Assembly: GCF_012843675.1 (NCBI RefSeq)
Contig: NZ_JABAFO010000010.1
Location: 1 to 55,186, forward strand
Reading direction: 5' to 3'
Origin: Lactobacillus sp. MRS-253-APC-2B
GTDB taxonomy: Bacteria > Bacillota > Bacilli > Lactobacillales > Lactobacillaceae
Length of the DNA: 55,186 nt
In this document: positions 443-4,040 of the stretch, in pieces
Position numbering within the stretch: the stretch's first letter is position 1
Layout: the number at the start of each line of letters is the position of its first letter
The notes under the pieces: model-generated
What the model was told of the DNA's origin: nothing
Seen by the model: the letters and a program-made list of their open reading frames with translations, nothing else
Database searches by the model: none
Translations under genes and position numbers: made by a program

Positions 443-1669
443 TTATTTGGTTGCATCAAATACGAAATTAGATGGCGTAAATTTGACGCGGTATGCACGG
501 TAAACGTATGTCCGGTCAGTTTTCGATGAACTGATAGTCAAGTTAAATACCTGGTTGTTGTTCTTATCAACTTCGATAATATTGCTTTGACTACCATCAT
601 GCTTGTAGCCAAAGTCAATCAAGGTATTGCCATTGCTTAAACGCTGTGCCGAGCCAATCACCCGTGTAAAGTTATCCTTACCCAAGCTCTTACCATAAGA
701 CCAAGTCTGCTTGATGGTTTTCTTCTTAGTATCAATCGTGTACTGAACCGCTTGTGAGTACTTGCCAGATGTCTTGGCATTACCGTTTGTGACATCAATG
801 TTGTTATCATAAAGCAACACTTTTAGTTTCCCATTTTTACTGCTCAAAAGCGTCAAATCATGCTGATCACCGGTAATCGTCGTACCTTTGGCTGGTGTCA
901 ACAGTTTGCTGCGATACTTCTTTGGCCATGAGCTTTTCTTTTTGCCAGAGTAGATCCAGTTAATTTTACCTGACTTATAGTTGATCGACATTGTTATATC
1001 CTGATTACGTGCTGAAACCAAGAGATTACCCGTCTTTTGATCATAGTAAAGCGAGTTCATGTGCAGCCAGTCGATCTTGCCACCCTTGGTTGTAGTACTG
1101 CTGTAGTTGCGGTACATGCTTGAAGGCAGCAATTTCTTAAAGTCGATTACCTTGACCGTCTTACCAGTCTTGTAATCAATTTCGGCGATCACGTCTTCCG
1201 CGTACTTGTCACCGCCAGAGATCGTTACCAACAGATTATGATTTGACAGTTCAAGCGCGTCATGATGAACCGCGGTAATGTATTGTTCAAGTGAGCTCTT
1301 ACCAAGCTTGTCGCTGAAACGATAACGCCGATAGATGCGGCCAAGGTAATCAGTTTCAGATAAGATGTTGTAGGACCCTTTATTGCCATTCGTCCGGTTT
1401 TGAATCAGCAAATGACCATTACTGAGCTGAACAAACGTGTGCCGGCTATAAAGCGTTGAATACCAGCGAATATTACCATCAGCATCGACAGCAAATGGTT
1501 CTTCAGAGGTCTTGTTGATGTAGGTCAGCTCGTTATTGCCGATCTGCATCTTGGACTTATTGCTCTTTGAAACCGTGATCTTAGTCTGGCGCAGGTTCTT
1601 AGGCAGCTTGCCCGTTTTAATGGTAAACGTTTTTTGTTCCGTCGTGCCATCTTTGTAGGTAAGCGTGAC
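443..1669 (-). pseudogene. assT: Aryl-sulfate sulfotransferase, C-terminal part of IS-split gene
   Basis: This is the catalytic C-terminal part (about 408 residues) of a PAPS-independent aryl-sulfate sulfotransferase, which moves sulfate from phenolic sulfate esters to other phenols through a histidine intermediate outside the membrane. Visible family features are a His-His-Asp segment (HHDALELSNHNLLVTIS), a WLHMNSL block followed by SARNQD, and a GDQHDL block, spaced like the active-site histidines of the beta-propeller. The frame stays open from 1669 down, but the first ATG in it is at 1549, so the stretch 1550-1669 belongs to the interrupted upstream half. Joining it to 3612-4040 across the element restores one 551-residue frame. 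Inactive as it stands, unless an internal start gives a partial product. Confidence 0.85.
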
Positions 1670-1896
1670 GTCAAGCTACCCCCGAATAAAATTCGGGGGC
1701 TTGTAGACTTCACCCATCAGTTCATCGCTGAATGAGTTACTAGCTACAATTTGCCTAGATAAAGCCAGCGCAGCAACATCTCAGATAATAAATTATCTTC
1801 GGATGGCACTACGTCTTACAGCCAATAACTAGGCCATTTAAGATCAAGCTAACGCTTAATCTAGGGGCGCAAGTTTCCAAACGTCCCTTTCTAAAA
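1670..1896 (-). ncRNA. Candidate omega-RNA (right-end RNA) of TnpB
   Basis: The 227 bases between the tnpB stop and the right element end contain no gene and are partly conserved in the copy at 11642. In characterised IS200/IS605 systems this region is transcribed with or from the tnpB 3' end as the guide RNA, and the guide is the host sequence just past the element. Here that guide would start with assT bases read from 1669 downward. A terminal hairpin at about 1680-1700 is visible. That the RNA is made is inference. Confidence 0.5.
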
Positions 1897-3231
1897 CTAA
1901 TAAATTGCTTCTAGATTCTGGTCGGGTCTGCTTAGCAAGCGTTGCCCCTTCGCTAAGATATTCAAAGCAGCATTGTGATCACGAATGTGATGAACATGGC
2001 AATTAGGACAAGTCCATTCACGATCATGAAGAGTTAATCGTTTGGTACCTTTGCTGCCCATCACGAAGCCGCAATCATAACAAGTTTGGGTTGTGTAAGC
2101 TGGATTAACTTCGACAAACGTGCGTCCATACAGCGGGGCCCTATATTCCAGCATACCCAAAAAAGTCCGCCAACCAACATCGGAAATACTCATTGCCAGG
2201 GCATGATTTTTAAGCATATTTTTACTCTTCAAGTTTTCCGCAACTACCAAATCGTGGCTCTTGATTAGTGCAGTCGAGGTTTCATGAAGAAAGTTTAGGC
2301 GCCGATTACGAATCCGTTGATGGATTTTGGCAACGACCAGCTTCTCCTGCTGGTAATTCTTGCTTGCCCACAAAGGACGATGCTCTTTTTTGGCACGCCG
2401 TGCCCGGCGAGAAAGAATTCGTTGGTGTTTTGCCAAGTGCTTCTTGATGGCACGATAATAGTGGGGATTAGCAACCTGCTTCTGATCACTGGTAGTAAGA
2501 AAGTTTTCGGTGTTTAGATCAATACCAACTGCTTGATTGGTATTGGGTAAAGCCTGGTGGAACGGCTCATCACTTTTAAGCAGTAATGAAACGGTCCATT
2601 GCCCGGTCGCGTAGTGCTTAATTGTAACAGTGGCAATCCGTACCAACCGATTAGTTGGCAATGAACGGTGTAATTTCACCTTAATAGAACCTAACTTCGG
2701 TAGCTGAATATGGTTATGATCTAAAAATTTGATTGACCCATTATAAAGTGAAGGAGTTCCCCCGTGTTTCTTTACGGTTGCACTCGAATAATGATTGGAA
2801 GTCGAATATGACTGAACAGAACGGCTTTTGCACTTAAACTTTGGTTTTCCGGCAGTGTGTACTTTCCGAAACATATTCCAAGCGGCTTTATAATTAACTT
2901 CGGTATTGGTGAACATATCACTATCAAGGTCATCATCACCAAGCCAAGGATATTGTTGAGCAGTGATACGAGCTAAACCAGTCGGCCGTTTCTGGCTCTT
3001 CTTAATTACCTTGCCGTTCTTGTCATAACGCCAATATGCTTCTGGAATTGGGTATCGCTTATCAAGTTTGTTTTTGATAATTCTACTATCAGTCCAGCTA
3101 TTAGCTAACAATTGGTTATAAATGAACCGTGAAGCATTCAGATTCTTCCACAAAATCTTTTCTTGTTTCCAATTTGGATATAAGCGTAGCTTTAGTCCCA
3201 TCATATATGGCAAATCTTCTTTTTTCGGCAT
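1897..3231 (-). CDS. tnpB: TnpB RNA-guided nuclease of IS200/IS605 family
   Basis: A 444-residue TnpB, the transposon-encoded ancestor of Cas12, which uses an RNA from the right element end to cut DNA next to a TAM. All RuvC-like acidic residues appear present: D238 (in GIDLN), E332 (in VAENL) and D418 (in RDHNAALNI). A zinc ribbon with two Cys pairs (CYDCG, then CPNCH) sits between the last two. The N-terminal helix-turn-helix/wedge part (KLRLYPNWKQEKILWKNL, then SRFIYNQLL) is normal. The start ATG at 3231 follows a GGGGGG-rich stretch (AAGGGGGGTG on the coding strand) that can act as ribosome binding site. The frame is complete with no internal stop, unlike its partner tnpA. Confidence 0.93.
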   Translation of the reverse strand: MPKKEDLPYMMGLKLRLYPNWKQEKILWKNLNASRFIYNQLLANSWTDSRIIKNKLDKRYPIPEAYWRYDKNGKVIKKSQKRPTGLARITAQQYPWLGDDDLDSDMFTNTEVNYKAAWNMFRKVHTAGKPKFKCKSRSVQSYSTSNHYSSATVKKHGGTPSLYNGSIKFLDHNHIQLPKLGSIKVKLHRSLPTNRLVRIATVTIKHYATGQWTVSLLLKSDEPFHQALPNTNQAVGIDLNTENFLTTSDQKQVANPHYYRAIKKHLAKHQRILSRRARRAKKEHRPLWASKNYQQEKLVVAKIHQRIRNRRLNFLHETSTALIKSHDLVVAENLKSKNMLKNHALAMSISDVGWRTFLGMLEYRAPLYGRTFVEVNPAYTTQTCYDCGFVMGSKGTKRLTLHDREWTCPNCHVHHIRDHNAALNILAKGQRLLSRPDQNLEAIY

Positions 3232-3258
3232 GTTATTTCACCCCCCTTTACTAATTTC

Positions 3259-3563
3259 CATTGTACTACTAAATATCGGAATGCCACATTTACAACGCCA
3301 GCACTAGTCAACGAGACGAAAGATATTCTAAGCACATTGCCAATCTTCATGATATTACGATAGAAAAAATGGAAGTGATGCCAGATCATATTCATATGTT
3401 GATCAGTTTTAAGCTCAAGTATTCAGCAACGAATATCGTTAAGGCACTAAAGGTTGGCAGTGCGCGAATATTCCTGCGTAATCATTCAGAAATCAAGCAA
3501 AAGCAGTACTGGGACGGCCATTTGTGGTCACGTAGCTATTACATGGGGACACTACTGCACTAA
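3259..3563 (+). pseudogene. tnpA: Remnant of TnpA (Y1 HUH transposase), frameshifted and truncated
   Basis: Two frames carry adjacent pieces of an IS200/IS605 TnpA. From 3259 one frame reads TTKYRNATFTTPALVNETKD; near 3335 the match moves to a second frame reading ANLHDITIEKMEVMPDHIHM, which holds the HUH metal-binding motif (HIH), then LWSRSYYMGTLLH and a stop. The first beta strand before TTKYR is missing, and after GTL the C-terminal helix that normally holds the catalytic tyrosine is gone, replaced by a stop and the left-end hairpin. It cannot be a working transposase. It diverges from tnpB. Confidence 0.85.
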
Positions 3564-3611
3564 TAAAGGGGCATTCCTCCCCCGATTAAAATCGTGGGAT
3601 TCCTGCCCGAG

Positions 3612-4040
3612 TTTTAATTGAACCTGGTTGGAGTAGTTGGCATAAAGCCCCACGATCGGTACCTGATGCGTAGTCTTATACCCCTTAACCGTATTGGTAA
3701 TCGAGGTGTTATCCGTCTTGCCGACAACCGTGTAAGTTACCTTAGCGACCTGGTCTGTTTTAAAGATCATCAAGGCGGTCAGCGGCGAGGTGCCATATGG
3801 ATTAACCTTGACGTAAGCATTATTCAGCGTCCGCGTAGTACTTTTGACGATTTTAGCGTAGCTTTTGGTCTGCTTGGATGTTGGATTATTCTTCAGCAGA
3901 TGACTGTTGATGTTCTTAATAATCTGCTTATCAAAAATCACTCCGAGCGAATAACGACGATAGCCCAGCCAGCCGCCAACGCCGCATAAGACCAGCAGCA
4001 ACGCAATCAGTACCAGCCAGCGTCCCTTTTTGTGATGCAA
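3612..4040 (-). pseudogene. assT: Aryl-sulfate sulfotransferase, N-terminal part of IS-split gene
   Basis: The first 143 codons of the sulfotransferase. Residues 8-26 form a hydrophobic signal/anchor segment after a basic start (HHKKGRW), so the enzyme was exported. The following NPYGTSPLTALMIF and VTYTVVGKTDNTSI segments resemble the N-terminal beta domain of bacterial AssT. The start is a TTG at 4040 with AAGGAAAG 8 bases upstream. After residue 143 the frame runs into the element and stops at 3552, adding about 19 foreign residues. Together with 443-1669 it makes one gene broken only by the insertion. Confidence 0.8.

What the first reader, a model, noticed from the sequence alone, without database searches (positions are those of the whole stretch)
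1670..3611. TnpB nuclease intact in an element whose transposase is dead
tnpB (444 residues) keeps D238, E332, D418 and the zinc ribbon, while tnpA is frameshifted near 3335 and lacks the C-terminal helix with the catalytic tyrosine. The element therefore cannot move on its own, yet the nuclease frame was preserved. This suggests selection on TnpB, or recent loss of TnpA with TnpA supplied in trans.
Basis: partly seen in the sequence, partly recalled or inferred. Interest (0 to 1): 0.7.

Follow-up and report, generated by a model that had tools for sequence, protein, structure and literature searches.

The report
Transposase-dead element keeping its guided nuclease
A bacterial jumping gene whose own transposase is long dead still reached new places and still keeps, under natural selection, its RNA-guided DNA-cutting enzyme and guide RNA, which suggests that the nuclease is worth keeping without the transposase beside it.

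Summary
Window 1670-3617 is an IS200/IS605-type element with divergent tnpA and tnpB, inserted 3' of TTCAA in an arylsulfotransferase gene; two genomes of the same genus hold that site empty. TnpB (444 aa) has an intact RuvC triad and zinc ribbon, and the 3' region folds as a guide RNA (z -6.5). tnpA has lost its start and N-terminus, is frameshifted, and lacks the Tyr helix.

Two copies with 97%-identical TnpB sit at other sites but share the N-terminal deletion and frameshift. tnpA therefore most likely died before these insertions, and transposition in trans is inferred. Among the three, tnpB has dN/dS 0.11-0.19: purifying selection. Caveat: two of them may have exchanged the dead tnpA segment.

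A 67%-identical tnpA-less relative sits at one orthologous site in two Companilactobacillus genomes: dS 0.49 (host-like), dN/dS 0.10, guide-RNA region 2 of 198 bases different.

tnpA-poor IS605 families, moved in trans, are already described (PMC7290912). Added here is sequence evidence that TnpB and its guide RNA are selected without an adjacent transposase. Homing or host function remains open.

The parts
1670..3617 (-). whole element, IS200/IS605 type, 1948 bp, right end at 1670 and left end at 3617
   Evidence: empty-site comparison with L108 and L109; end sequences
3618..3622 (-). target/transposon-associated motif TTCAA flanking the left end
   Evidence: TTCAA flanks 5 of 5 copies of this type listed (W, L011, L030, L031, L097) and fragment L104/L004 (read)
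1897..3231 (-). tnpB, 444 aa, predicted RNA-guided endonuclease; RuvC D238/E332/D418 and zinc ribbon intact
   Evidence: purifying selection
1670..1896 (-). right-end / guide RNA (reRNA, omegaRNA) scaffold with terminal hairpin ending TTGAC
   Evidence: fold z-score -6.49 for 1670-1900; consensus structure of seven sequences, 16 of 42 pairs with compensatory change
1650..1669 (-). first 20 nt of flank beyond the right end, the inferred guide; matches the unoccupied arylsulfotransferase target
   Evidence: position inferred by analogy with ISDra2; motif plus 11 guide bases has two places with 2 mismatches in the own genome, one of them the element's own end
3273..3563 (+). tnpA remnant: N-terminus and start deleted, frameshifted, C-terminal Tyr segment deleted
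3564..3617 (-). left end with imperfect palindrome
   Evidence: conserved in L011, L030 and, less, L031
3555..4040 (-). N-terminal part of the interrupted arylsulfotransferase gene
   Evidence: Pfam Arylsulfotran_N; long open frames in relatives; site continuous in L108, L109
446..1549 (-). C-terminal part of the interrupted arylsulfotransferase gene
   Evidence: Pfam Arylsulfotrans

Best explanation
A non-autonomous IS200/IS605 element. Its tnpA died in an ancestor; the element then reached new TTCAA sites through a related Y1 transposase acting in trans on its intact ends. TnpB with its right-end guide RNA remains a working RNA-guided nuclease that cuts copies of the target lacking the element, so that the element is copied back or empty alleles are lost. 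That activity keeps tnpB and the guide RNA under purifying selection without an adjacent transposase. Shown: the dead tnpA, shared old lesions at three sites, conserved ends, selection on tnpB, a conserved and structured 3' RNA region. Inferred: the trans transposase, the nuclease activity, and homing as the benefit.
For: Shared tnpA lesions in three copies. Different sites with empty alleles: the window site is empty in G027 and G003; the L011 site is empty in G003 and G000. tnpB dN/dS 0.125, 0.113 and 0.189. No indel between these copies in 1335 bp of tnpB, against 4, 2 and 2 gap events per pair in the tnpA remnant. RNA fold z -6.49 and compensatory changes. In complete genome G003, 9 of 9 elements of the two related types keep a full tnpB and 1 of 9 keeps a whole tnpA (Fisher p 0.0004). 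Orthologous tnpA-less insertion in G237 and G173: tnpB dS 0.491 and dN/dS 0.104; eight flanking genes dS 0.14-0.83; guide-RNA region 2 of 198 differences against 18 of 157 in the spacer; empty site in G196. Whole TnpA of the window's type exists elsewhere in the genus (G017).
Against: Between L011 and L030 the tnpA remnant differs at only 4 of 394 sites, fewer than tnpB synonymous sites (p 0.0004) and no more than tnpB nonsynonymous sites (p 1.0). This suggests exchange of the dead segment between those copies and weakens 'all divergence follows tnpA death' for that pair. No whole TnpA of the window's type was found in G000, G003 or G027; G003 and G027 do hold a whole TnpA of the other type, and that type's elements in G003 have different ends. 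The L030 site has no exact empty counterpart. The reverse state, whole tnpA beside broken tnpB, also occurs (3 of 110 by the script, plus L031, whose tnpB has a stop near its start). The orthologous pair is a single case among the 110 loci compared. Nuclease activity was not tested.
Confidence: 0.7

Rival explanations
1. TnpB is kept for the host cell rather than for the element: a cut-competent TnpB with a fixed guide serves a cellular role (defence against DNA carrying the target, or control of a locus), so vertical copies evolve like host genes.
For: Orthologous tnpA-less insertion with host-like dS and dN/dS 0.10, and a guide-RNA region at 1% divergence.
Against: One orthologous pair only among 110 loci. 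The window insertion itself is absent from G027 and G003, and motif plus 11 guide bases has only one other place in its own genome at up to 2 mismatches. Site-level homing predicts the same pattern.
Confidence: 0.2
2. Decay of a dying element by chance: tnpA was hit first because of luck and tnpB simply has not been hit yet.
For: Small number of close copies (three); tnpB is found broken in other elements (4 of 110).
Against: dN/dS 0.11-0.19 with upper limits 0.22-0.42; tnpB nonsynonymous change 12 of 1044 against tnpA remnant 17 of 290 for W-L011 (p 1.4e-5), though not for L011-L030 (p 1.0); 9 of 9 against 1 of 9 in G003.
Confidence: 0.1
3. The tnpA lesions were spread between independently inserted elements by recombination (gene conversion), so that the copies transposed with their own live tnpA and lost it later.
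For: L011-L030 tnpA remnants are unusually alike; tnpA copies in G003 look mosaic by eye.
Against: Copies are in three different genomes at different sites; W against the others shows tnpA divergence of 0.058-0.059, not significantly below tnpB synonymous divergence (W-L011, p 0.20).
Confidence: 0.15

Closest known systems
IS605-type elements of Halanaerobium hydrogeniformans (PMC7290912; passages and part 2 of 4 of the text read)
   Same: Divergent tnpA/tnpB, one tnpA able to make a functional protein among 22 copies, intact ends, movement in trans inferred by the authors
   Different: There most tnpB copies carry inserts or deletions too (four copies of the type judged most likely functional); here tnpB stays whole and under purifying selection
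ISDra2 and its TnpB (PMC8612924, passages read; PDB 8bf8 and 8h1j by sequence)
   Same: TnpB architecture and RuvC residues, insertion 3' of a five-base motif, guide from the right end
   Different: ISDra2 has a working tnpA; motif TTGAT against TTCAA here; activity shown there, not here
IS1341-type (tnpB-only) elements
   Same: Intact tnpB with ends, no working transposase
   Different: The window element still carries a recognisable tnpA remnant, so it looks like a stage on the way; the Companilactobacillus relatives without tnpA fit the type
TldR, nuclease-dead TnpB-like repressors (recalled; seen only in a search listing)
   Same: TnpB fold kept without transposase
   Different: Catalytic residues are intact here

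Membership tests
IS200/IS605 | Y1 HUH transposase gene | tested here: met
   Only as a broken homologue: Y1_Tnp 77 bits, profile 21-105 of 121
IS200/IS605 | subterminal imperfect palindromes at both ends | tested here: met
   Right-end hairpin in the fold and the alignment; left-end palindrome read by eye from the conserved sequence, not folded
IS200/IS605 | insertion 3' of a short motif without target duplication | tested here: met
   Empty-site comparison and end table
IS200/IS605 | autonomous transposition | tested here: not met
   tnpA dead by sequence; not a defining feature for non-autonomous derivatives
TnpB RNA-guided endonuclease | RuvC D-E-D and zinc ribbon | tested here: met
TnpB RNA-guided endonuclease | right-end guide RNA | tested here: met
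   By predicted structure and compensatory changes only; no Rfam match at E up to 1; expression not tested
TnpB RNA-guided endonuclease | RNA-guided cleavage next to the motif | not testable with these tools
   needs a bench assay
IS1341 (tnpB-only) | no tnpA | tested here: not met
   tnpA remnant present at 3273-3563
TldR | RuvC catalytic residues lost | tested here: not met
   Residues intact

The most novel reading that the evidence does not exclude
A cut-competent TnpB with its guide RNA can be kept for long times at one chromosomal site without any transposase beside it, either by homing against empty alleles or by a role useful to the cell: an RNA-guided nuclease turned into a locus-bound, self-preserving or host-serving system while still active.
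Probability: 0.35. Interest if true: 0.75.

Novelty: new member of a known kind. Interest (0 to 1): 0.5.

Why it matters
TnpB is regarded as the ancestor of Cas12, and tnpB-only elements are common, but why the nuclease persists without its transposase is not settled (from general knowledge). Here three copies that share a dead tnpA, and one tnpA-less insertion shared by two Companilactobacillus genomes, show selection on TnpB and its guide RNA with no transposase beside it. The question becomes testable in lactobacilli with natural empty sites as controls.

Tried and rejected
Sequencing error in tnpA: rejected, because the N-terminal deletion and the frameshift recur in other assemblies. Nuclease-dead regulator: rejected, catalytic residues intact. 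Plasmid or phage carriage of this element: no near DNA match in the plasmid collection (phages were not searched by DNA); protein matches in plasmids and phages are all below 60% identity; five viral contigs encode relatives at 49-53%. Rfam search of 1500-3800: no match. Second target of the inferred guide in the own genome: motif plus 11 guide bases at up to 2 mismatches gave two places, one the element's own end.

Census of 110 tnpB loci: tnpB whole in 106; tnpA whole in 50, absent in 36, broken in 24. By eye, L163 and L181 among the 24 look whole. The loci were found by TnpB, so the excess of whole tnpB is biased and I do not use it as evidence. L031 was counted as whole tnpB from an internal start although it has an in-frame stop near its beginning. 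The 110 are places I chose; most partial matches were left out, one search did not list all its matches, and (396 genomes) scored at most 4 candidates per genome. Fifteen further loci looked at (genome contigs and viral contigs) were not counted; at least three of them repeat counted loci.

An automatic motif test misjudged RuvC-II and the tnpA tail and was replaced. The search for more orthologous insertions among the 110 found only L150-L151. Literature: whether selection on TnpB after tnpA loss is already in print was searched only in the held open library; the 2023 Nature paper on selfish spread is not held, so no claim of priority is made.

Full report
What is there. The window belongs to a 1.98 Mb genome in 54 contigs, in the same genus as L. 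mucosae (with G027 identified below). Its tnpB is a full 444-aa frame with OrfB_IS605, Cas12f1-like_TNB and HTH domains and scores 294.5 against a cut-off of 100 for guided_TnpB. It aligns from residue 15 to 427 with ISDra2 TnpB (E 6.9e-51). D238, E332, D418 and the four zinc cysteines are invariant in all 8 aligned sequences. The tnpA remnant on the other strand matches Y1_Tnp from profile position 21 to 105 of 121.

Boundaries. G027 is L. mucosae DSM 13345: its contig C22 has the length of NZ_AZEQ01000029.1, and the compared stretch of its copy L029 is identical to L011. G027 and the unnamed G003 have a continuous arylsulfotransferase gene at the window's insertion point. The junctions put the element at 1670-3617, 3' of TTCAA and ending in TTGAC. 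The two empty alleles read TTCAG at that place, so TTCAA in the window's ancestor is inferred. TTCAA flanks the left end in 5 of 5 copies of this type listed and in a left-end fragment on another contig of the same genome. The related type in G003 has TTTAA in 8 of 8.

When did tnpA die? L011 and L030 have TnpB 97% identical to the window's. All three copies lack the same stretch with the tnpA start (about 120 alignment columns against the whole tnpA of L031) and share the frameshift. They lie at three different places. The window site is empty in G027 and G003. The L011 site is empty in G003 and in the window's own genome. At the L030 site G027 has 83 bases between the matching flanks, so that is not an exact empty site. 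The economical reading is that tnpA was already dead when the element moved, hence a transposase in trans. The window copy also lacks about 100 bp with the tyrosine helix that L011 and L030 keep.

No whole Y1 transposase was found in the window's genome (four matches, none whole). G017 has whole TnpA of the window's type with damaged tnpB beside it. G003 and G027 hold a whole TnpA of the other type.

Selection. Pairwise dN/dS of tnpB is 0.125 (bootstrap 0.06-0.23) for W-L011, 0.113 (0.05-0.22) for W-L030 and 0.189 (0.08-0.42) for L011-L030. tnpB has no indel in any of the three pairs; the tnpA remnant has 4, 2 and 2 gap events. For W-L011, changes are 12 of 1044 nonsynonymous sites in tnpB, 17 of 290 in the tnpA remnant (p 1.4e-5), and 3 of 227 in the guide-RNA region (p 0.0098 against the remnant). 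Against this, L011-L030 show only 4 of 394 in the tnpA remnant, fewer than tnpB synonymous sites (17 of 289, p 0.0004) and like tnpB nonsynonymous sites (p 1.0), which suggests some exchange of that segment.

Guide RNA. The 231 nt from the tnpB end to the right end fold at -83.5 kcal/mol against a mean of -58.7 for 200 shuffles, z -6.49. Seven sequences (window and six relatives) give 42 consensus pairs, 16 of them with at least one compensatory change. No Rfam family matched at E up to 1.

A second element family in one genome. Complete genome G003 has eight copies of a related type (51-52% identity in the alignments) plus L030. All nine have a full tnpB; one of nine has a whole tnpA (L083). 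Two copies have lost nearly all of tnpA yet keep both ends; L079 has an open frame with 11 residues missing. The ten Y1_Tnp matches in G003 all lie at these elements. Pairwise tnpB dN/dS among the eight is 0.05-0.14; since one of them still has tnpA, this is weaker evidence than the window's trio.

A fixed, transposase-free relative. G196 has the empty site; G298 looks empty too, with about 30 bases left unaligned between the matches. tnpB dS is 0.491 and dN/dS 0.104 (0.07-0.16). Eight flanking genes have dS 0.14-0.83 and dN/dS 0.009-0.071, all below tnpB's. The guide-RNA region differs at 2 of 198 sites, the spacer at 18 of 157. Among the 110 census loci this is the only cross-genome pair with shared flanks on both sides.

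Mechanism. Karvelis et al. (PMC8612924, passages read) report that ISDra2 TnpB cuts a target next to the motif that TnpA uses, and propose homing into empty alleles. A preprint (PMC11870625, passages read) reports that filled plasmids displace empty ones through TnpB's nuclease and that TnpA is not responsible for this advantage. Both fit the present case, in which TnpB is kept without its own TnpA. Whether the benefit is homing or a cell function cannot be decided here.

Known or new. tnpA-poor IS605 families, with movement in trans inferred, are described in Halanaerobium (PMC7290912, passages and part 2 of 4 read); there tnpB is mostly damaged as well. The present case is a new member of that kind, with sequence evidence for continuing selection on tnpB and guide RNA.

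Noticed in passing
L093, L152, L199, L218, L219, L220, L225, L226: In 8 of the 24 tnpA genes called broken the frame is otherwise long but one histidine of the HUH motif is replaced: first His to Tyr in six, second His to Tyr in one (L226), second His to Asn in one (L093). The tnpB beside it was called whole in 7 of the 8, not in L093.
   Followed up: partly
L083 (G003): The only G003 copy of its type with whole tnpA has a different right end (TTGAT where the other seven copies have TTGAC) and a different left-end palindrome; it may be poor at moving itself.
   Followed up: no
L105 (G000:C11:27700-30444): A second element in the window's own genome also has a broken tnpA; its tnpB is open up to the contig end.
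   Followed up: partly
L104/L004 (G000:C45): Left end plus C-terminal part of a tnpA of the window's type, 3' of TTCAA: remains of another copy without the window's C-terminal deletion.
   Followed up: partly
L031, L097 (G017): Whole TnpA of the window's type beside a damaged tnpB, the mirror image of the window element.
   Followed up: partly
446-1549 and 3555-4040: The host arylsulfotransferase gene is split by the element; G003 and G027 have long open frames there (553 and 556 aa; one TAG is counted in the G027 match).
   Followed up: partly
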